Positions 1,915 through 16,141 of a DNA stretch of 64,000 nucleotides are shown here, piece after piece (position 1 is the first letter of the stretch; every line of letters begins with the position of its first letter). The position numbers and the translations under genes are program-made. The DNA lies in assembly GCF_010111755.1 (NCBI RefSeq), contig NC_088959.1:620001-684000 (forward strand), in the 5' to 3' direction. The notes beneath the pieces are model-generated. The model saw nothing but the letters and a program-made list of their open reading frames with translations. It did no database searches and had not been told where the DNA came from. Origin of the DNA: Nakaseomyces glabratus. Its lineage: Eukaryota > Ascomycota > Saccharomycetes > Saccharomycetales > Saccharomycetaceae.

Positions 1915-3213
1915 ATGAGTACTGGTGACTTTCTGAGCAAAGGGATTGATCTGGTGCAGAAGGCGATTGAGTATGATACTGCTACGCAGTACGAGGAGGC
2001 GTACACAGCGTACTACAACGGGCTGGACTATCTGATGTTGGCGCTGAAGTATGAGAAGAACCCGAAGTCGAAGGAGCTGATCCGGGCGAAGTTCACGGAG
2101 TACTTGCAGCGGGCGGAGCAACTGAAGCAGCACTTGGATGAGGAGCAGGAGGCGAAGAAAAAGGAGTCGACCTCGGTTGGTGCTGGCTCTGGCTCTGGCT
2201 CTGGCTCTGGGAAAGACGATGAGGATACAGAGGACGGTAAGAAGCTGCGAGGCGCGCTGTCGGGTGCGATACTGTCGGAGAAGCCCAATGTTAAGTGGGA
2301 GGACGTGGCGGGTCTGGAAGGTGCGAAGGAGGCGTTGAAGGAGGCCGTGATCCTGCCGGTGAAGTTCCCACACTTGTTTAAAGGTAACAGGAAACCCACA
2401 TCTGGTATCCTCCTGTATGGGCCTCCGGGTACTGGTAAGTCCTACTTGGCGAAGGCAGTGGCCACAGAGGCCAACTCCACGTTCTTCAGCGTCAGTTCGA
2501 GTGATCTGGTGTCCAAGTGGATGGGTGAGTCCGAGAAGCTCGTGAAACAGCTGTTTACAATGGCCAGGGAGAACAAACCCTCGATCATATTTATCGATGA
2601 AGTCGATGCATTGACAGGGCAACGTGGTGAAGGGGAAAGTGAGGCCTCGAGAAGAATTAAAACGGAGTTACTGGTCCAAATGAACGGTGTCGGAAACGAT
2701 TCGCATGGTGTCCTGGTCCTTGGTGCAACGAATATACCTTGGCAATTGGATAGCGCTATCAGAAGAAGATTTGAAAGAAGAATATACATTCCATTGCCGG
2801 ACGTAGCCGCAAGAACCAAGATGTTTGAGATCAACGTGGGTGAGACTCCATGTTCTCTAACCAAGGAGGATTACAGAAACCTCGGGCAAATGACAGATGG
2901 TTACTCTGGTAGTGATATTGCCGTTGCTGTTAAAGACGCTCTGATGGAACCGATAAGAAAAATCCAGGGAGCTACACATTTTAGGGACATATCAGATGAC
3001 CCTGACCATAGGAAGTTAACTCCTTGTTCTCCTGGGGATGAAGGTGCAATTGAGATGAGTTGGACTGATATTGAGGCTGACGAACTAGAAGAACCAGTAT
3101 TAACTATAAAGGACTTCTTGAAGGCTATCAAGAACACTAGGCCAACCGTTAATGAAGAAGATTTGAAGAAACAAGAAGACTTCACCAAGGACTTCGGTCA
3201 AGAAGGTAATTGA
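1915..3213 (+). CDS. VPS4: AAA ATPase Vps4 (ESCRT-III disassembly)
   Basis: A 432-residue protein, close to S. cerevisiae Vps4 (437). An N-terminal MIT domain (about residues 1-80), which binds ESCRT-III tails, leads through a charged linker to a type I AAA cassette. Walker A is GPPGTGKS with Lys175; Walker B is IIFIDE with Glu229; a second-region-of-homology stretch (RRRFERR) follows. The C-terminus has the beta-domain and the final helix typical of Vps4. It disassembles ESCRT-III at endosomes for multivesicular body sorting. The linker carries a Gly-Ser run (four GGCTCT units, 2185-2208). Base composition changes along the gene: the line 2041-2100 is 57% GC and 3061-3120 is 38% by hand count. 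It is divergent from RPM2 and convergent with the flavoprotein gene downstream. Confidence 0.97.
2185..2208 (+). repeat. In-frame (GGCTCT)4 Gly-Ser repeat in the VPS4 linker
   Basis: Four exact hexamers encode alternating Gly and Ser between the MIT domain and the ATPase domain. The length is a multiple of three, so slippage would keep the frame and only lengthen or shorten the flexible linker. Confidence 0.9.
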
Positions 3214-3465: not shown

Positions 3466-4095
3466 TCATTTGTAAACAGCGGTGTTATTTTCGCTATCTG
3501 TCACCTTAGCACTCTCGATCTTAACCTTGACAATAACAGTGTTATCACCTAGAATGAAAACCTCAGCGTCTGGATTAGTCTTCAGAAGTAATTGCTTGTA
3601 GAATTTAGATTCCTCAGTAGCTGGATTAACAATCTTTGCATGGCCTTTGATATTAGCACTCATTTGATTCAATTCAGCCTGATTTAGTTCATGCAATAGG
3701 TTAAGCAGTTTGCTTGGATGTGAGTTTGGAATTGCACCGCCCCCCGTACCGGAAGCAGGATTCAGCTGTGTAGAAGCAGGATCAGGTGTTGGGGTCTGTG
3801 ATAAACTAGCTTTCCTCACAGATAAATTATTTGCTGTAATCCAATCATGAAACAAAAGTGAAACGGGAGGATTAGCAACCATATTATGGTATTTCTCGGA
3901 ATCCTTGTTGGTAGCAAAAATTATGTAATCATTCTTGTCATTCTCTTGATCAAAGGTTTTATCTCTTGGAATATATGAATAGTTCATCAACGATACAGAT
4001 GGAACACAATCCTTAGAACATGTACCAACATGTACATACTTGGAAGTTTTGATTAAGTGAATCAAATGTCCTGGAAATTTTTCAGTACAAGGCAT
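3466..4095 (-). CDS. Pyridoxamine 5'-phosphate oxidase-like flavoprotein (YPR172W/YLR456W family)
   Basis: A 209-residue protein that begins MPCTEKFPGHLIHLIKTSKYVHVGTC, followed by a split-barrel core (VSLMNYSYIP, DYIIFATNKDSEKYHNM, PPVSLLFHDW). This matches the fungal PNPOx-like family whose S. cerevisiae members are YPR172W and YLR456W. These are predicted FMN-binding proteins without a proven reaction, and they should not be called true Pdx3 enzymes. The position between VPS4 and BSP1 fits YPR172W. The middle (about residues 100-135) is a low-complexity Ser/Pro/Gly insertion. No targeting signal is evident. Confidence 0.88.
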   Translation of the reverse strand: MPCTEKFPGHLIHLIKTSKYVHVGTCSKDCVPSVSLMNYSYIPRDKTFDQENDKNDYIIFATNKDSEKYHNMVANPPVSLLFHDWITANNLSVRKASLSQTPTPDPASTQLNPASGTGGGAIPNSHPSKLLNLLHELNQAELNQMSANIKGHAKIVNPATEESKFYKQLLLKTNPDAEVFILGDNTVIVKVKIESAKVTDSENNTAVYK

Positions 4096-4396: not shown

Positions 4397-5974
4397 CTAT
4401 ATTTTGGTAGGCAGCTTTCTTTTTGGACCACGACTGCGTGATTTATTTGGATGACTTAGAGATTGTGTAGTATGCGGTTCTTTTTTACTTAACAAGTCTC
4501 CAGTTGTTGCAGCTCTAGGTGGTAAATGACCAATATGCTTGCTCCCAATTTGGCCTGATGTATTAGCTCGTTTGAGAACGGATTCCAACTTATTGTTAAT
4601 GCTCTCCGGCTCTGAGTCTGAAATCTCAGATTCCTCACCATTGTCCTTTTGTACATTTTCTGTCGTGGAGTTTTTATTCTTCATAGATTCCAGCTTCTTA
4701 AGTGCTTCAGGCATAGAGACTTTCCGTTGAGGAACTGGGGGTCCTTTTTTATTCAGTTTAGGAAGCATGTCAATTGACTCCTTGCTTTGGGCAACAGATT
4801 TCTTATTCTCAGTGTTCTTGGATAAATTTTGAGCTTTCAATAAGGCTTCCGGAATAGATGGCTTACGCTTAGATACAGGCGGTGGAGTTCTTTTGTTTAG
4901 GACTATCTTTTGAAACTCTGGCTCAATTTGTTTACCATCCCCCCCTTTTCCTGTCTTGTCGACCTTTTCTAACTCGATATCCTTCAATTTTATATCCTTC
5001 TTTGGCGGAACTACAGGCTTTTTCTTTTCAGCTTTTGTTGTGAGTCCTCCAGACAAATGGTAATTGCCTTCATTACTCGGTTTTTCACTCAAGGAGGATC
5101 TGGAGTTCTCTTCTGAGCTCAATACCGAAACTATAAAACCGTCTTTTTTGGGCGAATTCAATTTAAAATGCTTTTCCTCTATAGTTTTCATCTTCGATGG
5201 CGATTGAGGCGGTGATTTCAGTTGGACTGATTCCAAGAAATCGACATTCCTTGTTGGTTTTAGTTCAGGTCCTTTGTCTTGATCTTTATAATTACTGGTA
5301 GTTAGTTTGTTATCTTCAAGTGATTTCAAAAATGTCTTCTTTTCTGGTAATGGAGGTTTTGATTTATTTTTATCTGATATTGATGACATTTCTTTGATCT
5401 TGTTTGAACTATTCACATTATCTGAAACCACATCAAGTTTTTTTGCCGTTATATCGTCCTTATACCTTCTTCTAGGTAGTAACGGAGGAGCAGATGTTGT
5501 ACTCTTTACAACATTCTCAGAGCTAGCACGATTCCTGGAAGGCAATGGTGGAGCTTCATCTTCACTCTCTTCTCTTACTATTACTGGTTCATTGTGAAAT
5601 ATAGGTTTAGAGTGCCTATCGGGGATGATATGGCGAACCGGCTCAATATGGCGATGATGTCTCTCGGATAGATGCTGTTGTTGCTGTTCCATTTTGATTT
5701 TCTGCAATAATTTATAGTCTTCTTCTGAGACAAGAAATTTCCTATCGTCTTCTTTATCCAATCCAATTACTCCAACTGGCTTCTTCGAACCAAAACTCTT
5801 CTCATAATTAAACGCCGATTTATAAACTAAATTACCATCAAGTGTATCATCGTTTTCTATTGGGGTGGTACTCAAATGCTGCGGTTTCTTCTTCACAATT
5901 GGAGGTTTATTGATCTTCCCGTCAAGATCCTCAACCCGCTTTAAAAACTCTTCAACTTCGGCATCTTTGGTCAT
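4397..5974 (-). CDS. BSP1: Cortical actin patch adaptor Bsp1-like
   Basis: A 525-residue, mostly disordered, Lys/Ser/Pro-rich protein (S. cerevisiae Bsp1 is 576). It has repeated short proline modules: PPLPSRNR, PPLLPRRRYK, KPPLPEKK, VVPPKKD, and two related repeats PPPVSKRKPSIPEAL and PPVPQRKVSMPEAL. Such modules suit SH3-type binding. In S. cerevisiae Bsp1 links synaptojanins (Inp52, Inp53) to the actin cytoskeleton and takes part in contractile ring closure. The basic tail (KSRSRGPKRKLP) is typical of the family. The identification combines the modules with synteny (between YPR172W and subunit f). Confidence 0.87.
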   Translation of the reverse strand: MTKDAEVEEFLKRVEDLDGKINKPPIVKKKPQHLSTTPIENDDTLDGNLVYKSAFNYEKSFGSKKPVGVIGLDKEDDRKFLVSEEDYKLLQKIKMEQQQQHLSERHHRHIEPVRHIIPDRHSKPIFHNEPVIVREESEDEAPPLPSRNRASSENVVKSTTSAPPLLPRRRYKDDITAKKLDVVSDNVNSSNKIKEMSSISDKNKSKPPLPEKKTFLKSLEDNKLTTSNYKDQDKGPELKPTRNVDFLESVQLKSPPQSPSKMKTIEEKHFKLNSPKKDGFIVSVLSSEENSRSSLSEKPSNEGNYHLSGGLTTKAEKKKPVVPPKKDIKLKDIELEKVDKTGKGGDGKQIEPEFQKIVLNKRTPPPVSKRKPSIPEALLKAQNLSKNTENKKSVAQSKESIDMLPKLNKKGPPVPQRKVSMPEALKKLESMKNKNSTTENVQKDNGEESEISDSEPESINNKLESVLKRANTSGQIGSKHIGHLPPRAATTGDLLSKKEPHTTQSLSHPNKSRSRGPKRKLPTKI

Positions 5975-6257: not shown

Positions 6258-6794
6258 CTAACGTAATTTAATTGACCTTCTTCTGGTGCTCAAGTAGGCT
6301 TGGAAACCACAGAACACAAAGAACACCAAGTAAACTAACGCAGCAAGATACACCGTCTTTGCAACACTACAATAATAAAAACAACCAAGTAGATAATCCA
6401 TTTTCAAGATATTGATTTCGGTTATTCATATGGCATGATTAAAAAAACAGTTAGTAAAGCATTCTCCTTGATGTGTCAAATGGCAGAAAAGGAAACTTTG
6501 AAGATATTGTAAAAGATAGTTCAACATACGCTGGCCCGTCCTCGGGATCGTTAATAGATCCCACAAAGGATTCATGATTTGTGTTAAACAAATGTGCTAT
6601 TACCGATAGTATCACCACCCCAAAAGCGGATAATATTGTACAAAACCAAGCTTTACCACTCTATTTATAACTTTCCAAATTGCCTATATTAAAAACATAA
6701 GCCTTTCGAATTTCTCAATTGTTAGTATTACAGGATTCCATGAATAGGTAGATCATATTCTTCAAAGTTAACATACAGATACAACTGGATTCAT
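6258..6794 (-). CDS. YPR170W-B: V-ATPase V0 subunit f (YPR170W-B/RNaseK family), three exons, two introns
   Basis: I assembled this by eye on the minus strand. Exon 1 is 6794-6777 (18 nt, MNPVVS), exon 2 is 6660-6530 (131 nt), and exon 3 is 6366-6258 (109 nt, ending in TAG). Together they give 85 residues. Both introns have a GTATGT donor, a perfect TACTAAC branch site and a TAG acceptor. The product has two hydrophobic helices (ILSAFGVVILSVIAHLF and TVYLAALVYLVFFVFCGF) joined by a NTNHESFVGSINDPEDGPAV loop. This matches S. cerevisiae YPR170W-B nearly residue for residue as I recall it. That protein was identified structurally as subunit f of the vacuolar ATPase proton channel. Position between BSP1 and JIP5 agrees. 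I recall one intron in S. cerevisiae, equal to intron 2 here; intron 1 would be extra. Confidence 0.93.
6367..6529 (-). other. Intron 2 of the subunit f gene (163 nt)
   Basis: The donor GTATGT is at 6529-6524, the branch site TACTAAC at 6456-6450, and the acceptor TAG at 6369-6367. It splits an Ala codon (GC|T). The exon sizes on either side match the two exons I remember for S. cerevisiae YPR170W-B (149 and 109 nt, with exons 1 and 2 here summing to 149). Confidence 0.92.
6661..6776 (-). other. Intron 1 of the subunit f gene (116 nt)
   Basis: The donor GTATGT is at 6776-6771, the branch site TACTAAC at 6727-6721, and the acceptor TAG at 6663-6661. The intron is phase 0, after codon 6. Without splicing, the frame upstream of exon 2 hits the acceptor's own TAG immediately, so the intron is required to reach any ATG. 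Confidence 0.9.
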
Positions 6795-7109
6795 TTCTTC
6801 TAACCTGTTTCAGTTTTGCGTTATTAATACAATTGCCTTCAAACCTTTAGCGACAATATTAACCCGGACTATAACTAAGGCAAGCTTTTAACTATATAAT
6901 AGTGGCAGATCTGCTCTTTTACATTATATACTTCGCTATGTGACGTATTACCTGGTCTTGAAGTTGCTATCGAACACTCCCTCGCTTCATTTGCAGGGGA
7001 ACACATCGAAAGATTAGGCTGTTAGTTGCTTAAATGCCGGGTAATGCGGTGCTTGAAGATTCTCTAATGTGACCGCGTCTTTCGTCTCGAAATATCAACA
7101 AATTACAAT
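6795..7109. other. Promoter region of the subunit f gene, up to tRNA-Ile
   Basis: This 315-nt AT-rich spacer lies upstream of the spliced gene (minus) and of the tRNA (plus). No clear factor site was recognised. Confidence 0.5.
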
Positions 7110-7183
7110 GGTCTCTTGGCCCAGTTGGTTAAGGCACCGTGCTAATAACGCGGGGATCAGCGGTTCGATCCCGCTAGAGACCA
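7110..7183 (+). tRNA. tRNA-Ile (anticodon AAT)
   Basis: A 74-nt cloverleaf. The acceptor stem is GGTCTCT paired with AGAGACC, with discriminator A. The D-arm is GGCCCAGTTGGTTAAGGC-like. The anticodon stem CCGTG/CGCGG encloses loop CTAATAA (anticodon AAT). The T-loop is TTCGATC. There is no intron and no encoded CCA, as usual for nuclear genes. A T-rich stretch follows shortly downstream and could terminate Pol III. Confidence 0.97.
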
Positions 7184-7390
7184 TTTATTTTTGTCTTTTG
7201 GTCTTTTGTTGTTGAATTCTGTTAGACAACCAGGTAAGTGGGAAATTGAATGATAGACAACGGTCTGTACCTTTCTCTGTCTTTTTATTTTTTTTTCAAT
7301 TATGCCATAGCAGTATTATCAATGCCCTGATATTTGCTTCAAGAGATATGAGATTTACTAATATACAATGCTAATCAAAATTTACTAATA

Positions 7391-8917
7391 TTACAAACCA
7401 TCAAATTTGGTAATACCATGAGATAAGTTATTCTCATTCTTTTTAAACTTCTTATTCTTTTTATCCTTCACTTTTAGTGATCTTTTCTTGGGAGGCTCTT
7501 CTTCATCAGAAGTAGGTTGATCAAGTTCTTTCCACAGTTCTTCACGATCGTCGTGATTGTCGTCATCATTGCTGTTATTTTCGCCCTCACTACCTTCTAT
7601 ATCACCAGGAAGATCACTACCAGTACATTCTTCCAGGTCACTGTCAGATTTAGAGCTGGCATCAGATTCAACTTCCGATTCTGAACCAGATCCTAACTCC
7701 GAGTCGGAATCGGAATCTTCAGATGAGGACAAACCGGCTTCTGAGTCGTCATTTATATCTGAGTCTGAGTCTGAGTCCGAATTTTCTTCCTTTGGTACTT
7801 CCCAAATTTTCAGCTTATCCATACCGCCTGAAACAAGTCTGTATTCGAAATCGAGATCTAGCATACCTACTTCATCAAGTCCACTGTGCTTTCTAATTTC
7901 AACAATTTTACCACGCTTAGTGTCAACCTTATACAGTAAACCGTTGGAACAACCACACCAAACACAGTTATCGTCTTGGAGAGTTGATATCACGGTATCG
8001 ATACTCTCACCCTTTGCAATCTTCACTCTCGTCAGTTGATCTTCCAAGTCGTTCTTCTTAGGTTTCCAAACAGTCAGTGTCCCTTCACCCATACCACATA
8101 CTAAAGTATCACCCTCAATTGGATCCACAAATGCACCACACAAAATTTCGTCCTCTTGGTCATCGCTACACATGATATTAGAGAGCTCTTCCTCGGTTTG
8201 GTTCCCACTGTTCTTCTTCGGTTGCTTCATCTTGGGCTCTCTAGTGTCCCAGTAGGCCAGCGTAGTTTGACCCAAGGAGATATATTTGTAGACCGACCTC
8301 TTGCAGAATTGGAATATGTCGTTGATGGCATCTCCCCCGTGGATCTTGGTCAGAGTGTTCTTCGTAGTCAGATCATTACTGTCCAGCACCACGATGGTGC
8401 CAACTTCATCACCCATCACCAGGAAATCATGGGTAGCCGACTTCACCAGCTTCGTGACTTTAGAGCCACCATCCAGCGTCACCTTCTTGACCACTTTCCC
8501 GCTATGCGTGTCCGCCTTCTTGAGAACGTTGTCCGCACCAATAGTGTAGACATGCTTACCGTCGTGGTCAATGGCCAACGCACGCACACTGCCTTTGTGC
8601 CTCTTGGTCCTCCACAACAACGTCACCCCACTGGGCAGAACAGGATGCTTGTCCGCGGCGTCCACATCCACCACAGTCCACAGCGTCTGCTTCTTCTCCT
8701 CAACCTTCACAGCCTCCTGCACTTTCCTCGCCTCCCGCAACTTCTCAGTCAGCAGCTCAGCATCATACCGATGGCACAGCACATGGCCCGTAGCCAGCGC
8801 ACTCACCACCATAGGCTCCTCGGGGTGACACACAAACTGGAACAACGGCTCCGCATACCGAAACTCAATCACAGGCAACTCATCAGACTGCACAACACTC
8901 GTCTTCTTCTTCCCCAT
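7391..8917 (-). CDS. JIP5: WD-repeat ribosome biogenesis protein Jip5
   Basis: A 508-residue protein from the ATG at 8917 (MGKKKTSVVQ...). The open frame continues 12 codons upstream but has only a TTG there, so I chose the ATG. A single WD40-type propeller covers about residues 15-350 (HKGSVRALAIDHDGKHVYTIGADNVLKKAD, VSGGMDKLKIWEV). A long acidic Ser-Asp-Glu tract follows and then a basic KDKKNKKFKK tail, a common nucleolar pattern. S. cerevisiae Jip5 (492 residues) is needed for 60S subunit biogenesis. Two PAC boxes stand in the promoter. The 5' half is GC-rich (58% in 8581-8640) and the 3' end AT-rich (25% in 7381-7440). Confidence 0.93.
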   Translation of the reverse strand: MGKKKTSVVQSDELPVIEFRYAEPLFQFVCHPEEPMVVSALATGHVLCHRYDAELLTEKLREARKVQEAVKVEEKKQTLWTVVDVDAADKHPVLPSGVTLLWRTKRHKGSVRALAIDHDGKHVYTIGADNVLKKADTHSGKVVKKVTLDGGSKVTKLVKSATHDFLVMGDEVGTIVVLDSNDLTTKNTLTKIHGGDAINDIFQFCKRSVYKYISLGQTTLAYWDTREPKMKQPKKNSGNQTEEELSNIMCSDDQEDEILCGAFVDPIEGDTLVCGMGEGTLTVWKPKKNDLEDQLTRVKIAKGESIDTVISTLQDDNCVWCGCSNGLLYKVDTKRGKIVEIRKHSGLDEVGMLDLDFEYRLVSGGMDKLKIWEVPKEENSDSDSDSDINDDSEAGLSSSEDSDSDSELGSGSESEVESDASSKSDSDLEECTGSDLPGDIEGSEGENNSNDDDNHDDREELWKELDQPTSDEEEPPKKRSLKVKDKKNKKFKKNENNLSHGITKFDGL

Positions 8918-9452: not shown

Positions 9453-12400
9453 ATGAAGAATTTGCTCTGGCCCAAGAACAGGAAGTCTAAGAAAGCCAGT
9501 GCCGGCGGAGCCGGCACGGGCTCTGACGCAGGCACTGATGCGTCCTCGTCGCTTCGGAGTACTAGCTCGCTGTCCGTGAATAAGCTCACGCACAGCAGCT
9601 CGCATGGCGCGTCGCTGGATAACTACATCGCGCAGGCTAAGCGCGGGAGCCGGAGCTCGCGATCCAGCCAGAACTTGCTCGCGTCGAACAAGAGCAAACG
9701 GATGAGCTCCGCCAACATGCGCAACATCACTAACCCTGAGAACACAATGTCCAGCGGCAACGAACAGGCGCACGGCTCTGGAAAGCTCGGCTACGGCGCC
9801 CTGGGGAAGCTGAAGGGATCGGCCTCGCGGTCCCAGGTGTCGCTCCACTCCATGCGACAGGACAGCGCCGGCTCCACGCATCAGCATAGCAAGGAGGAAG
9901 CCGGCTCGATCCTCTCCGATGACGTGACAAGCATAGACTCCAGGAGATCACAACATCTGTCCACCTTGGACTCATCAGGGAAAATACCCGATCACGTGAA
10001 CGTAAACAGTAGCAGAACCTTCAGCAAGTCAAGAGAGTCCCTGCAATCCATCTCGGGCAAGTCGTCCACTTCGCCGCAGCCTACGCACACACTCCTGCAC
10101 GGGGCTTCAGATGACAACAGGAACACGCTCGCGTCAATTGACTCGAACATAACCGAAACAACGATTATCAGCGACGGCGGCCCCGATAACGTAAACTTAA
10201 CGTTTGAAAACTACGACGAAACGGTGCTGAAAGTGGGCTGGCTGAACAAATCACAAGGTCAAGTCACAGTACCGTTGAGTTCTACGCATTCTACCAGCGG
10301 AGTCACTACAACAGCTGCCGATTATCAACCCAGAAATAGAGAGAGCAGAATATATGAGACTAACACACTAGATAGCTCTGATGATATGAGCGGGAAGACT
10401 GTGACAACTCTGCCTGACTCACAGATAACAATACCTGATTATAGAGTATTTAGAGCTCAATTGAAAGGTTCATTACTGACTTTATACAAGAGCTCTTTGG
10501 GGTCCCATGTGAAATGCTTTGATCCCAGCTTAAAGTCTCTTGAGAGCGATTTGACTACAAAAGAAAGTAATAGACAATCTGTGATTCCTTCAAAAAGTAA
10601 GCAGAAAAGTAGTACTAAAAATGATGTCATACCGAAATCAGTCACATTAAAACATCTAAGCGTTACGGGACCTCATCCTGATCTCAAAGTTGATAAGCAT
10701 GGAATTGTTATCGGCGGAACTGTAGAGGCCATATGTCATGATATATTATTCACAACAAAACCCATTCATTTATTGCACAAGAAACACTCAAAGATCTCCA
10801 ACAATAATTCAGATGATGACGTCGAAGTCCAAAAAAGTCTTGTTAATTTCCTAATTATTTTACCGATGCTGGATCATTTTATCAAATTTATTATAACGTT
10901 CAATCAATTTGGTCTAACTTTTACAAAACACAAGTCTAAGATTAGTTCCACATCATCACAATACGTTCGAATCACAGAAGTTGTAGATACTCAAATAAGC
11001 AACAGGTTAGTCCTGGTCATAAGAACTATACTAGAATTCACTCCAGCCTATTTACTCGATGACAATATCTTCCAGTCCATTATAACTCTTATCGATACAA
11101 TTTCGTTACACAACGATGCAATTTGTAATCAAATAAAGATCGATGTGGCCACTCGTTGTAACGAGTTGAATAAACTGACCAAGTTCAGTAAGACTAACAT
11201 TAACAATAAAGATGGATTTCTTCCTATGGAAAGTTTGGTTGACGTTAATAGATTCATGGAACTAGATCCTTCCAAATTTGCAGAGGAAGTACACTCGATC
11301 AACCTGGAATTCAACAAAGTTTGGGCCCCTAGAAAGGATTTTTCTCTGCTCTATGACTCCAAATTCAACAACAAAAATATATTATCATTGAGCCCTCTAA
11401 TTTTCAATAACAAGGATAATGTACATTTTCTGGGCAGACTCCTAGTTACACACTTATTCTCAACTAACCATAGGAGTAAGGAGCAATGCAGAAAAACTGC
11501 AGAAGTTTTGAACAGATGGGTGCTTCTTGGTTGCAAATTCGAGCAATTAGGCGACATGGTATCGTGGTTGGCAATTGCAACTGTGATTTGCTCCATTCCA
11601 ATTCTGAGACTAGGCGCCATATGGAAATATATGCCCGAATCAACTGTTAAAATCATTTTAAATGATTGGGTACCTACAATTGTTCAGTTAGACAGGAGAC
11701 AGATATCATCTAAATCCACAGGAAGCGTTTTTATTTTGGCGCCACCCAATTTAGATGATCCCAACATTAAGAATAATATTGTTTCATATTTTGGTGATCT
11801 TATCATTCATGCCGATGATCTTCCCAACGATGTTAAGATTAAATATCTAGCTAAGAAAATAAACAGGACAAAAAATGCTTTCCATAAATGGCAATCTCGT
11901 GTCGATAAAGATAATAGTACTGGACAAGCCGCCACATTTAAGTCAATTGATCCTAACTCTTCTATGGTTTATGATTTCTGGAATTTCCATATCCATCAAC
12001 CTCCTATGAATATTAATGATATTATGAAACAGAGTATCAAATGTGAACCGGCCTTGGTAAACCAAAGTGTTTATTCCAGTATTGGGCTTAAAAGAAGCTC
12101 TTTAATGACCGGTAGCTATTTGCCAACTCTTTTCAATAACTTCCTCAATTCATACTCAATATTTCCGAAGGAGGTTTTGATCGGTGCAGCTGGTGTTTTA
12201 GCGGATACAAACATAAGCAGACAATCAATGCTTGCGGCAAAGGAGCTTAAAATCAGTGAACCTATATCTCAAGTGGTTCCAGGATCCTTAAACTATGAGC
12301 ACAGGTATAGCCAAATCACAGGTTTGGACAACATTGATGGCCCTGTAAAGAAAGAAATTGCTGGGAAACCTCTCAACAAGCACCATCTTCTGAAATCTAT

Positions 12401-15400
12401 CCGAGATGCTTTCAATGTTGATTTGGATGTCTTTCATGTAGGCGATGATCTTGTTTTCAAATCAATTACAACTAACCAGGGTAAATCAAGACCATCAAGC
12501 ATCGTTATTGACACGCCAAAGAGGTTCTCACAATATTCTACCTCTAACAGTAGTCCTTCTACACCAAAACTCAATAGGGAATCCACTACCATTGTTAGAT
12601 TAAGCAAAGGATTCGAGAATTTGGATTTGTTTGATAATGTGGGCAACTTATCGGATAGCCTAAAGGAGCTAAACATTGATGTTGCTTTAAAGTCAGCCAG
12701 TATCGAGAGAATATATGACTTATTGGTCCTAACTGTCTCAGCTTTTTCTAGACTTGTTGACTCTGTTGATCTTACAAAATACTATAAGGGCAGGAGATCT
12801 TTTGATAACAATACAAATGACTTATCTGACATAGGCCTATTAGACTTTGCCTATATTAAAATCAACATGGATAATGCGGCTTATACGGAAACCTTTTTCA
12901 ATACCTATAAGAGCTTCACTACAACAGTCAATGTGTTAGAAGGTTTGGCTAGAAGATTCATTGGCGCCAAGAGTTGTGCTCTATCCATCGAGAAAATTAT
13001 TGGTAATGAAAATCTGGATTCACTTAAGGACGAAACTTTAAAGTCAAAGTTGTCTCAATTAAATGCAAAGAAATTCCCTCTATGGGATTTGAATGTGAAT
13101 AAAAATGAGACTGTAAACTTAGGATTTCTAGCTAAAGTTCAAATTGGAGCCATGGAGGCTATCTATTATTTAGTTAAACATCATTATAATGATTTTACGG
13201 ATGATATGAACTGCCACACAACAATGCTAGATATTGTTAAGATTATAGAGGAGGAAATAACAGTTGAGTGGGAACATCGCTTGAAAACATCAAAAGAGAA
13301 TAACTTATTCGATAATGTTGCACATCAGGAGCTCGAGAATTTAATCAAAAGATTAAGAGAACTATTCAATATTTTGAAATCCACATATAGAAAGCAACTA
13401 TACAAACCTCTGAACATCTCCAAAACCGAAAGAAACTCGTCAAACTTATCAGAACAGTTCAAAACCCTTCCTTACGAAGATTATATAGCATTTTTGTCGG
13501 AGGGCGAAGGCGACAAGCTATATTTGAATTTCAAGAACATGAATTATGATGACTATGATTCTATTCATGCATGGGTAAATGACATAAACAATATCGTAAC
13601 TTCCAGATTTGCTGCAGTCACTAGAATGGAGTGGTTTCAACTCTACCAACAACTCGATCTGCTATCAAATGCTAGTCTTACTTCTTTCTTCCAATATCCG
13701 TTAAGCGCTAAATCCTTTTCAACAATCAACACTGGAAATCCTCTTTTGAATGAAGTTGAAATAACTGATGTTTTTGAATGGATTTCAACATTAAATACCA
13801 AAACATCAGATGTGAATGAACTATTTATTGATAAAATTCCATCCTCAATAAAAGTTTTAATCGAAATGCATAACAGTCTCAAGTCATTTTTTGTTTCTGA
13901 GCTAGCGAATGTTAGTGCAAGTTTGGAAGAAAGGAAAAAAGTGTATTGTACCATCCTACAACTTCTCAACTATGTTCGTTGGAAAAATTCATCATTGAAT
14001 TTATTTGAAGGCGAAATTGATAATGAAAACATAATCTCACCGCATATCCCCTCATTCATTGAAACCACATTATGTAGAGCAATTGTTTCCCCTGAGTCTA
14101 GATTTAACGAGTTGCTTTGGAAGCATGCCCATTATACCTTATCAACATCTGATGACAAATACTCTTTGAAGTCAATTTCAAATATCTTGGACGACTTAAA
14201 TGTCTCACATATTCGAGCATTTTTGGAAATCGATAATGTCTATACTGCTAAACCTCAAAATTTATGCCCTTGCCCAGGCTGGTTTATAACAAGATTACTT
14301 GAAATTTCACAGTTTGTTCCAAATATGAGCATATCCAATACAAAACTAGTTAACTTTGATAAGAGGAGATTTGTTTGCAACATAATCTATAACATATTGG
14401 AAATCCTCCCAAAAGATATTGAGTTAGCTACAACGGCAGAATCACATAGAATGCTGTTTACCAAATTATTAGGCGATAATGCCGAGCTAAGGGAAAAGTT
14501 ACGTTCAAAGGCACTGGAAGATGCCAAAGAAGAAGGTTACCAAAATACAGGTATATTCAATAATATTCTGGTAGATGAGGTCGATAAAATTCGTAGGGAA
14601 CATAAGAAGAAGGAATCTTTGACATTACAGGAAGCTGAAAATCAAAGATCTCTGAACTTGCAGAAAAACTACGCAATAAACAAGCATGATTCACTACTAC
14701 TGACAAGTAGTACCTCTAATGTTTCTGCAAATTCTGCACATTTACTCCGTAATAAAAGAAGCTCCACTGCATCTTTAGCATCAAGAAGTTCTGTGATCTC
14801 AGGAACCAGTCATTCGGGAGTAGGCCGAAAAATTGGAGGCTTTTTCAGGAGACCATTTTCGATTAGTGGTTTCAATAGTACTGGGCAAGGAATACCACCA
14901 AATGGAGTTCAAGATAAGTTCATTTCACCTGATAATCTACCACATCTTGAATCAAATATATTACAGGATTATAAACCTGCATTGACAATAAAAACTTTTG
15001 AGATCAAATCTATTGTTGACATAATCAACCATAATAAAGTATCTTCTTACGCTCATGCTTTTCGTATAGTTATGCAGGACGGTAGCGAGCATATGGTTCA
15101 AGCTGTATCATCAGAAGAGGCCTTAGAATGGATTAGATTGATTAAGATTTCTAAGAGATATTCTTTCCATTCGAAAAAATATAGCGGCCAGACCCGTAAT
15201 AAGATTTTTGGTGTACCATTAGAGGATTTATGTGTTAGAGAAAACACCTTAATCCCATCTATCGTGGTAAAATTGCTCGAGGAAATTGAATTGCGAGGAC
15301 TGGATGAAGTAGGCCTTTATAGAGTACCAGGTTCGGTTGGAAGTATTAATGCCTTGAAGAATGCTTTTGATGAGGAAGGTGCTACAAATAATACTTTCAC

Positions 15401-15812
15401 GCTTGAAGACGATAGATGGTTTGAAATTAATGCTATAGCAGGCTGTTTCAAGATGTATTTGCGTGAATTACCTGATTCATTATTTACCAATAATATGTTT
15501 GGCGATTTCACGAAAGTTGCACTACAGTATAAGACGTCAGCTATCGATTTCGAAGCTTATAAGGCTGAAATTAAAAGATTGCTCAGTCTTCTACCTCCAT
15601 GCTATTATGCCACATTGGAACGGATTGTAATTCACTTGAACAAAGTTCATAGGCATTTGATGAATAATAGAATGGATGCATCCAACTTATCTATCGTTTT
15701 TGCCATGAGTTTTATAGACCAGGATGATTTGAGCAGTAGTATGGGTCCAACATTAGGTGCAGTTCAAAGCATATTACAGAAATTCATCACTAACCCTGAA
15801 GATTATTTTTGA
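9453..15812 (+). CDS. BEM2: Rho GTPase-activating protein Bem2
   Basis: A 2119-residue protein from the ATG at 9453 (MKNLLWPKNRKSKK); the frame upstream has no ATG. S. cerevisiae Bem2 is 2167 and starts alike. A Ser-rich, low-complexity N-terminus (to about 220) is followed by a RasGEF-like helical middle (about 1060-1700), a PH-like segment (about 1840-1905) and a C-terminal RhoGAP domain (about 1920-2119). The GAP arginine finger is Arg1957 in GLYRVPGS. Bem2 acts on Rho1 and Cdc42 and is needed for bud emergence and cytoskeletal polarity. The first 230 codons are GC-rich (65% in 9481-9540), against 27% in 10861-10920. Confidence 0.97.
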   Translation: MKNLLWPKNRKSKKASAGGAGTGSDAGTDASSSLRSTSSLSVNKLTHSSSHGASLDNYIAQAKRGSRSSRSSQNLLASNKSKRMSSANMRNITNPENTMSSGNEQAHGSGKLGYGALGKLKGSASRSQVSLHSMRQDSAGSTHQHSKEEAGSILSDDVTSIDSRRSQHLSTLDSSGKIPDHVNVNSSRTFSKSRESLQSISGKSSTSPQPTHTLLHGASDDNRNTLASIDSNITETTIISDGGPDNVNLTFENYDETVLKVGWLNKSQGQVTVPLSSTHSTSGVTTTAADYQPRNRESRIYETNTLDSSDDMSGKTVTTLPDSQITIPDYRVFRAQLKGSLLTLYKSSLGSHVKCFDPSLKSLESDLTTKESNRQSVIPSKSKQKSSTKNDVIPKSVTLKHLSVTGPHPDLKVDKHGIVIGGTVEAICHDILFTTKPIHLLHKKHSKISNNNSDDDVEVQKSLVNFLIILPMLDHFIKFIITFNQFGLTFTKHKSKISSTSSQYVRITEVVDTQISNRLVLVIRTILEFTPAYLLDDNIFQSIITLIDTISLHNDAICNQIKIDVATRCNELNKLTKFSKTNINNKDGFLPMESLVDVNRFMELDPSKFAEEVHSINLEFNKVWAPRKDFSLLYDSKFNNKNILSLSPLIFNNKDNVHFLGRLLVTHLFSTNHRSKEQCRKTAEVLNRWVLLGCKFEQLGDMVSWLAIATVICSIPILRLGAIWKYMPESTVKIILNDWVPTIVQLDRRQISSKSTGSVFILAPPNLDDPNIKNNIVSYFGDLIIHADDLPNDVKIKYLAKKINRTKNAFHKWQSRVDKDNSTGQAATFKSIDPNSSMVYDFWNFHIHQPPMNINDIMKQSIKCEPALVNQSVYSSIGLKRSSLMTGSYLPTLFNNFLNSYSIFPKEVLIGAAGVLADTNISRQSMLAAKELKISEPISQVVPGSLNYEHRYSQITGLDNIDGPVKKEIAGKPLNKHHLLKSIRDAFNVDLDVFHVGDDLVFKSITTNQGKSRPSSIVIDTPKRFSQYSTSNSSPSTPKLNRESTTIVRLSKGFENLDLFDNVGNLSDSLKELNIDVALKSASIERIYDLLVLTVSAFSRLVDSVDLTKYYKGRRSFDNNTNDLSDIGLLDFAYIKINMDNAAYTETFFNTYKSFTTTVNVLEGLARRFIGAKSCALSIEKIIGNENLDSLKDETLKSKLSQLNAKKFPLWDLNVNKNETVNLGFLAKVQIGAMEAIYYLVKHHYNDFTDDMNCHTTMLDIVKIIEEEITVEWEHRLKTSKENNLFDNVAHQELENLIKRLRELFNILKSTYRKQLYKPLNISKTERNSSNLSEQFKTLPYEDYIAFLSEGEGDKLYLNFKNMNYDDYDSIHAWVNDINNIVTSRFAAVTRMEWFQLYQQLDLLSNASLTSFFQYPLSAKSFSTINTGNPLLNEVEITDVFEWISTLNTKTSDVNELFIDKIPSSIKVLIEMHNSLKSFFVSELANVSASLEERKKVYCTILQLLNYVRWKNSSLNLFEGEIDNENIISPHIPSFIETTLCRAIVSPESRFNELLWKHAHYTLSTSDDKYSLKSISNILDDLNVSHIRAFLEIDNVYTAKPQNLCPCPGWFITRLLEISQFVPNMSISNTKLVNFDKRRFVCNIIYNILEILPKDIELATTAESHRMLFTKLLGDNAELREKLRSKALEDAKEEGYQNTGIFNNILVDEVDKIRREHKKKESLTLQEAENQRSLNLQKNYAINKHDSLLLTSSTSNVSANSAHLLRNKRSSTASLASRSSVISGTSHSGVGRKIGGFFRRPFSISGFNSTGQGIPPNGVQDKFISPDNLPHLESNILQDYKPALTIKTFEIKSIVDIINHNKVSSYAHAFRIVMQDGSEHMVQAVSSEEALEWIRLIKISKRYSFHSKKYSGQTRNKIFGVPLEDLCVRENTLIPSIVVKLLEEIELRGLDEVGLYRVPGSVGSINALKNAFDEEGATNNTFTLEDDRWFEINAIAGCFKMYLRELPDSLFTNNMFGDFTKVALQYKTSAIDFEAYKAEIKRLLSLLPPCYYATLERIVIHLNKVHRHLMNNRMDASNLSIVFAMSFIDQDDLSSSMGPTLGAVQSILQKFITNPEDYF

Positions 15813-15966
15813 GTTTACTAGTTTAACTATAACTTCAAAATTCTACTACCATATCCTTTTTGAAAGTCTATTTCTGTTCACTTTTGCATTTTTTTCTATA
15901 ATATAATTAACATCCCTTTCCATCATATATTAATATTAAGCAATAACAGTAATCGTAATAATAGTA

Positions 15967-16013
<47 letters not shown>

Positions 16014-16141
16014 TAATATTGGATTCTTAAGTTAATTATTCTTTCTGCATGAATAAAATCTAATCTACACTAAAATTGTGAAACTATTTACAGTATTATA
16101 ATCAAGGTTTATATGTTCCAGACAGTCTGTCCACTTAGCGC
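15813..16141. other. Convergent BEM2/OXA1 3' region
   Basis: This 329-nt AT-rich spacer holds both 3' UTRs and the AAT repeat. TATATA and AATAAA-like motifs suit yeast 3' end formation, but no site can be fixed. Confidence 0.6.
15950..16013. repeat. AAT trinucleotide microsatellite
   Basis: An imperfect start (GTAATAATAGTAATAG) runs into an uninterrupted (AAT)n tract of about 14 units. It is noncoding, between two convergent genes, and likely to vary in length between strains. Confidence 0.95.

What the first reader, a model, noticed from the sequence alone, without database searches (positions are those of the whole stretch)
6258..6794. Spliced V-ATPase subunit f gene with a six-codon first exon and two introns
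The gene is invisible to ORF scanning because its longest exon codes for only 43 residues. Each intron has GTATGT, TACTAAC and TAG, and the assembled frame gives exactly 85 residues matching the YPR170W-B family. S. cerevisiae has, as I recall, only the second intron; exons 1 plus 2 here (149 nt) equal its first exon. So intron 1 is an ancestral intron lost in S. cerevisiae or a gain here. A two-intron gene is rare in budding yeasts.
Basis: partly seen in the sequence, partly recalled or inferred. Interest (0 to 1): 0.8.

Follow-up and report, generated by a model that had tools for sequence, protein, structure and literature searches.

The report
Two-intron yeast proton-pump subunit gene
This is the ordinary gene for a small membrane subunit (f) of the vacuolar proton pump, very probably of the yeast Nakaseomyces (Candida) glabratus, cut by two introns, one of which baker's yeast lacks; the protein is already annotated and an extra intron in this gene is already reported.

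Summary
Exons 6794-6777, 6660-6530 and 6366-6258 (minus strand) join into an 85-residue V-ATPase subunit f. It is not new. An identical protein is annotated in Nakaseomyces glabratus as GVI51_I06259. Hooks et al. 2014 (PMC4202332, passages) list an additional, then unannotated intron in YPR170W-B that S. cerevisiae lacks; it is not among their eight possible gains.

Independent support: a public ORF, P0051, joins exon 1 to exon 2 at exactly the predicted junction while reading into intron 2. Nine ORFs (at most seven distinct sequences) from other yeasts break at the same point, each with Q, a possible CAG acceptor, before it. This favours an old Saccharomycetaceae intron lost in Saccharomyces over a gain here.

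One detail not seen in the papers I looked at: the acceptor at 6661 lies 61 nt from the branch A, beyond an earlier UAG at +38 whose use would shift the frame. That UAG is predicted to be paired in a hairpin: one post-hoc case with mixed controls. Overall ordinary; low interest.

The parts
6777..6794 (-). exon 1, six codons (MNPVVS)
   Evidence: identical start in annotated N. glabratus protein P0001; joined to exon 2 in P0051
6661..6776 (-). intron 1, 116 nt, GTATGT...TACTAAC...TAG, phase 0, branch A 61 nt before the final G
   Evidence: removal at this junction fits P0051
6674..6710 (-). predicted hairpin between branch point and acceptor of intron 1; the upstream UAG (ends 6684) is paired in it
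   Evidence: prediction only; window coordinates worked out from the fold, whose first base is 6720
6530..6660 (-). exon 2, 131 nt
   Evidence: translated match to residues 6-57
6367..6529 (-). intron 2, 163 nt, GTATGT...TACTAAC...TAG, phase 2, same position as in S. cerevisiae
   Evidence: read-through in P0051 and in S. cerevisiae P0061
6258..6366 (-). exon 3, 109 nt including stop
   Evidence: translated match to residues 50-85
1915..3213 (+). neighbour: VPS4-like (MIT, AAA, Vps4_C), synteny
3466..4095 (-). neighbour: PNPOx-like protein (YPR172W by position, name recalled), synteny
4397..5974 (-). neighbour: 525-aa ORF without Pfam or PDB match at E 0.001 (BSP1 by position, name recalled)
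7391..8917 (-). neighbour: WDR55-like (JIP5 by position, name recalled; best Pfam match is below its curated cut-off, 83 against 200 bits)

Best explanation
A single-copy orthologue of S. cerevisiae YPR170W-B, the membrane-embedded subunit f of the V-ATPase Vo sector, very probably in Nakaseomyces (Candida) glabratus. Its pre-mRNA carries two ordinary spliceosomal introns. Intron 2 is shared with S. cerevisiae; intron 1 is an old Saccharomycetaceae intron that Saccharomyces lost precisely. Shown: sequence, frame, family, one locus in the genome. Supported indirectly: removal of intron 1 in RNA (P0051), and intron 1 in relatives (protein-level breaks). Inferred: a hairpin between branch point and acceptor hides the earlier UAG so that the distal, in-frame UAG is used; this last step is rated apart in the novel case and is not covered by the confidence given here.
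For: Exact frame and consensus. Pfam PF23489 E 8.9e-39, 132 bits against a cut-off of 27. PDB 6c6l_O E 1.3e-46 over 85 of 85 residues. Identical annotated protein P0001, GVI51_I06259 [Nakaseomyces glabratus], 28 contigs. One locus in the 12.7-Mb, 13-contig genome: 1 DNA match, and 2 protein matches that are exons 2 and 3 of this gene. P0051 (75 aa, one 566-bp ENA contig) equals, residue for residue, the script's product 'intron 1 removed, intron 2 retained'. Nine of the 147 proteins listed (P0013, P0018, P0068, P0074-P0077, P0079, P0147) have foreign residues ending in Q directly before exon 2; P0018 and P0079 agree over the break, as do P0077 and P0147, so at most seven distinct sequences. 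In P0018, P0076 and P0079 the foreign part holds HTN, which CATACTAAC would encode. Hooks et al. 2014 (passages and section 11): additional unannotated introns in five genes including YPR170W-B, only the HOP2 one present in S. cerevisiae; YPR170W-B is not among the eight possible gains.
Against: No RNA reads could be examined. P0051 could come from a strain whose DNA lacks intron 1; its library type is unknown. Codons behind Q and HTN in the relatives are back-translated, not seen. The position of Hooks et al.'s additional intron and the species that hold it are not in the passages and section I read, and their reconstruction used Dollo parsimony and assumed an ancestor with almost all introns, which leans against gains. 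Many rows like the named CTG-clade yeasts are unbroken 84-85-aa proteins from uncurated contigs, and Penicillium proteins show insertions at other positions, so age beyond Saccharomycetaceae is not shown. The nearest YAG to the branch point is not the one the model uses.
Confidence: 0.96

Rival explanations
1. Intron 1 is a recent gain in the Nakaseomyces lineage.
For: S. cerevisiae P0061 (and unnamed, similar P0063) read uninterrupted through the site.
Against: Nine ORFs (at most seven distinct sequences) from other yeasts break at the same point, one named Zygosaccharomyces rouxii (P0018), which Hooks et al. treat as outside the post-duplication species. Hooks et al. do not list YPR170W-B among gains.
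Confidence: 0.03
2. Intron 1 uses the nearer UAG (ending 6684) as main acceptor; the in-frame product is a minor isoform and splicing throttles expression.
For: It is the first YAG after the branch point, 38 nt from the branch A.
Against: That product is a 29-residue frameshifted peptide; P0051 fits the distal acceptor; the UAG is predicted paired with probability 1.00 at 25-42 C in all five contexts folded.
Confidence: 0.04
3. A different upstream exon, not the six-codon one, is joined to exon 2.
For: Very short first exons are hard to prove from sequence alone.
Against: 127 of 146 proteins fit the script's pattern M-x-[PA]-[VIL]-V ahead of the exon-2 part. Between 7500 and 6661 the pattern GT[AGT]NGT occurs only at 7398 and 6776. 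P0051 holds this very exon joined to exon 2.
Confidence: 0.01

Closest known systems
S. cerevisiae YPR170W-B, V-ATPase subunit f (PDB 6c6l chain O)
   Same: 85 residues, aligned over 1-85 without gaps; same position of the second intron (P0061); similar neighbours (S. cerevisiae gene order recalled)
   Different: S. cerevisiae has no intron after codon 6 (P0061)
Nakaseomyces glabratus GVI51_I06259
   Same: identical 85-residue protein
additional intron of YPR170W-B in Hooks et al. 2014 (PMC4202332)
   Same: an intron in this gene absent from S. cerevisiae (passages)
   Different: position and species list are not in the passages and section read
S. cerevisiae SUS1, a two-intron gene with regulated retention (PMC4691836, abstract start in the listing)
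   Same: two introns in one gene
   Different: no evidence here for regulated splicing
mammalian RNAseK, f-subunit homologue (PMC10003446, passages)
   Same: stated homologue of yeast f
   Different: not compared by sequence here

Membership tests
V-ATPase subunit f (PF23489) | profile match above curated cut-off | tested here: met
   132 bits against 27, residues 1-78 on profile 1-78 of 78; the only other listed family, ABC_membrane, is below its cut-off
V-ATPase subunit f (PF23489) | full-length match to the solved subunit | tested here: met
   6c6l_O, 85 of 85 residues aligned
V-ATPase subunit f (PF23489) | presence in the Vo sector of the organism | not testable with these tools
   needs protein purification or structure
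Saccharomycetaceae spliceosomal intron | GTATGT, TACTAAC, AG (consensus as stated in PMC4202332) | tested here: met
   both introns
Saccharomycetaceae spliceosomal intron | removed from RNA at the predicted junctions | tested here: inconclusive
   P0051 fits removal of intron 1 but could be an intron-less allele; the spliced protein is annotated; no reads available
ancestral (not gained) intron | same position in several lineages | tested here: met
   at the protein level only: nine of 147 listed proteins, at most seven distinct sequences, break at this site with Q before it; no DNA of relatives was found
stem between branch point and acceptor that shortens their effective distance (Meyer et al. 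2011, cited in PMC12350175 and PMC7935899; itself not read) | stable stem between branch point and acceptor, here covering a decoy AG | tested here: inconclusive
   -11.6 kcal/mol, z -3.38, 2 of 200 shuffles as good; but the whole intron has z 0.01, and 70 of 1000 flank shuffles also pair the decoy

The most novel reading that the evidence does not exclude
Intron 1 carries a hairpin that hides a frameshifting UAG at +38 and brings the in-frame UAG at +61 within reach of the branch point (61 minus a 37-nt stem-loop, about 24 nt). Correct V-ATPase f would then depend on RNA structure, with structure loss giving a 29-residue dead product: a structure-gated acceptor outside Saccharomyces.
Probability: 0.35. 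Interest if true: 0.35.

Novelty: already known. Interest (0 to 1): 0.15.

Why it matters
It also shows how a six-codon first exon can mislead annotation: the public Z. rouxii entry P0018 appears to start inside intron 1 (inferred from its protein). Scientifically it is a routine case of the reported pattern that yeast introns are lost far more often than gained.

Tried and rejected
Search for relatives' DNA: one scan of viral contigs (25 stretches matched a pattern) and one of genome contigs (305 stretches) gave no encoded relative. These collections cover viruses and bacteria/archaea, so intron 1 in relatives was judged from broken protein ORFs only. Rows that start late or are partial (P0045, P0065, P0072, P0082, P0086) were not counted, because a late start does not prove an intron; P0104, P0114, P0137 and P0138 failed the script's pattern but carry an intact MKP start by eye. 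Penicillium proteins (P0073, P0078, P0080, P0081, P0083, P0084) show insertions at other positions, so they do not support a pan-fungal age for either intron.

The hairpin idea was tested with controls. Locally it is unusual (2 of 200 shuffles fold as well; 8 of 1000 flank shuffles as stable). The whole intron is not (88 of 200 shuffles fold as well). 70 of 1000 flank shuffles also pair the decoy at 0.95 or more. With exon sequence included, the used UAG at +61 is itself paired with probability 0.44-0.63. The AG at +51 is open in the local folds (0.01-0.05) but paired in the whole intron (0.82-0.93) and partly so with both exons (0.41-0.48); the AG at +19 stays mostly open. Intron 2 shows no such signal (z -0.74). 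It was one intron, looked at after the fact; it is kept only as the novel case.

Papers: nine searches. Four papers in the library hold YPR170W-B; passages of three were seen (PMC4202332, and its section 11; PMC6453484; PMC10003446), and PMC8269383 only in the listing. Passages were also seen of PMC3847288, PMC12350175 (no YPR170W in its text) and PMC7935899. The guessed locus name CAGL0I06259g gave no paper. Candida glabrata + intron + V-ATPase + subunit f gave one paper, by its title on another subject. I made no search specifically for a hairpin in this intron.

Full report
Observation. On the minus strand, exons 6794-6777, 6660-6530 and 6366-6258 join into 258 nt, 85 codons and a stop. Introns are 116 and 163 nt, each GTATGT...TACTAAC...TAG. 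Exons 1+2 make 149 nt. In the 1416-nt gap between the flanking genes the donor/branch-point pair occurs twice on this strand; 17 of 5000 dinucleotide shuffles had one or more and 1 of 5000 two or more. The three full donor/branch/YAG combinations found in the window are all in this gene.

Identity. Pfam gives PF23489 V-ATPase_su_f, E 8.9e-39, 132 bits against a cut-off of 27. The best solved structure is 6c6l chain O, V-type proton ATPase subunit f / YPR170W-B, 85 of 85 residues aligned, E 1.3e-46. The protein database holds an identical 85-residue protein named GVI51_I06259 [Nakaseomyces glabratus], which points to the organism; the window's genome of 12,726,212 bases in 13 contigs fits that yeast (chromosome number recalled). 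DNA and protein searches of the own genome find this one locus. Neighbours are a VPS4-like AAA protein, a PNPOx-like protein, a 525-aa ORF without Pfam or PDB match, and a WDR55-like protein (below that model's cut-off); this fits the S. cerevisiae order VPS4, YPR172W, BSP1, YPR170W-B, JIP5 as I recall it.

Is intron 1 spliced as drawn? P0051, a 75-residue ORF on a 566-bp ENA contig, equals the script's product for 'intron 1 removed, intron 2 retained' over its whole length. The simplest reading is a partly spliced transcript. An allele without intron 1 is the alternative, since the type of library is unknown. Of the five AGs from the branch point to the end of intron 1, only the last restores the frame. 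Predicted structure pairs this UAG fully at 25-42 C in all five contexts folded, in a stem of -11.6 kcal/mol (z -3.38, 2 of 200 shuffles as stable). Stems that shorten the effective distance from branch point to acceptor are described in S. cerevisiae (PMC12350175 passages, citing Meyer et al. 2011; PMC7935899 passages, where most Prp16 signal lies within about 45 nt of the branch A). Against it: the whole-intron fold is unremarkable (88 of 200 shuffles as good), 70 of 1000 flank shuffles also pair the decoy, and the used UAG is about half paired when exon sequence is included.

Ancestral or gained? Nine of the 147 listed proteins from the three searches have foreign residues running into exon 2 at precisely this junction, each with Q just before it, as a CAG acceptor would give: P0013, P0018, P0068, P0074, P0075, P0076, P0077, P0079, P0147 (eight of the nine, without P0147, aligned). 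P0018 is named Zygosaccharomyces rouxii; P0079 agrees with it across the break, and P0077 agrees with P0147 over about the first 100 residues, so there are at most seven distinct sequences. In P0018, P0076 and P0079 the foreign part includes HTN, compatible with CATACTAAC, four codons before exon 2. S. cerevisiae P0061 reads MRPVVS directly into exon 2 and then into intron 2. Hooks et al. 2014 (PMC4202332; passages, section 11) report manual discovery of additional introns in five genes including YPR170W-B, of which only that in HOP2 is in S. cerevisiae, and list eight possible gains without YPR170W-B. Since S. cerevisiae already has the second intron, their additional intron is most likely intron 1 (inference; position not in the text I read). 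Their method assumed an ancestor with almost all introns, so it leans against gains. [quoted passage not shown] glabrata; another paper gives 129 intron-containing genes against 287 in S. cerevisiae (PMC3847288 passage). Age beyond Saccharomycetaceae is open: many rows like the named CTG-clade yeasts are unbroken, and Penicillium proteins show insertions elsewhere.

Function. [quoted passage not shown] Nothing here suggests a new function.

Verdict. Correct observation, correct identity, already annotated protein and already reported extra intron in this gene. Interest 0.15.

Noticed in passing
window 6684 (minus strand, inside intron 1): A UAG 38 nt after the branch A precedes the used acceptor and is predicted fully paired in a hairpin.
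   Followed up: partly
protein P0018 (Zygosaccharomyces rouxii ZYGR_0N00380): The public 87-aa entry begins MHTNTTYQ before PGKAW, probably intron 1 sequence including the branch point, so its start looks misannotated (back-translation only).
   Followed up: partly
protein P0062 (S. cerevisiae BON23_2757): A 67-aa entry follows the GPA end of the first S. cerevisiae exon with residues that match neither the last exon nor the intron read-through seen in P0061, so its splice model looks wrong.
   Followed up: no
window 7109-7184: tRNA-Ile (AAT) on the plus strand, upstream of the gene.
   Followed up: no
window 9453-15812: 2119-aa ORF with RhoGAP and RasGEF-type domains, BEM2-like by recall.
   Followed up: no
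window 15956-16018: TAA trinucleotide repeat of about 20 copies.
   Followed up: no
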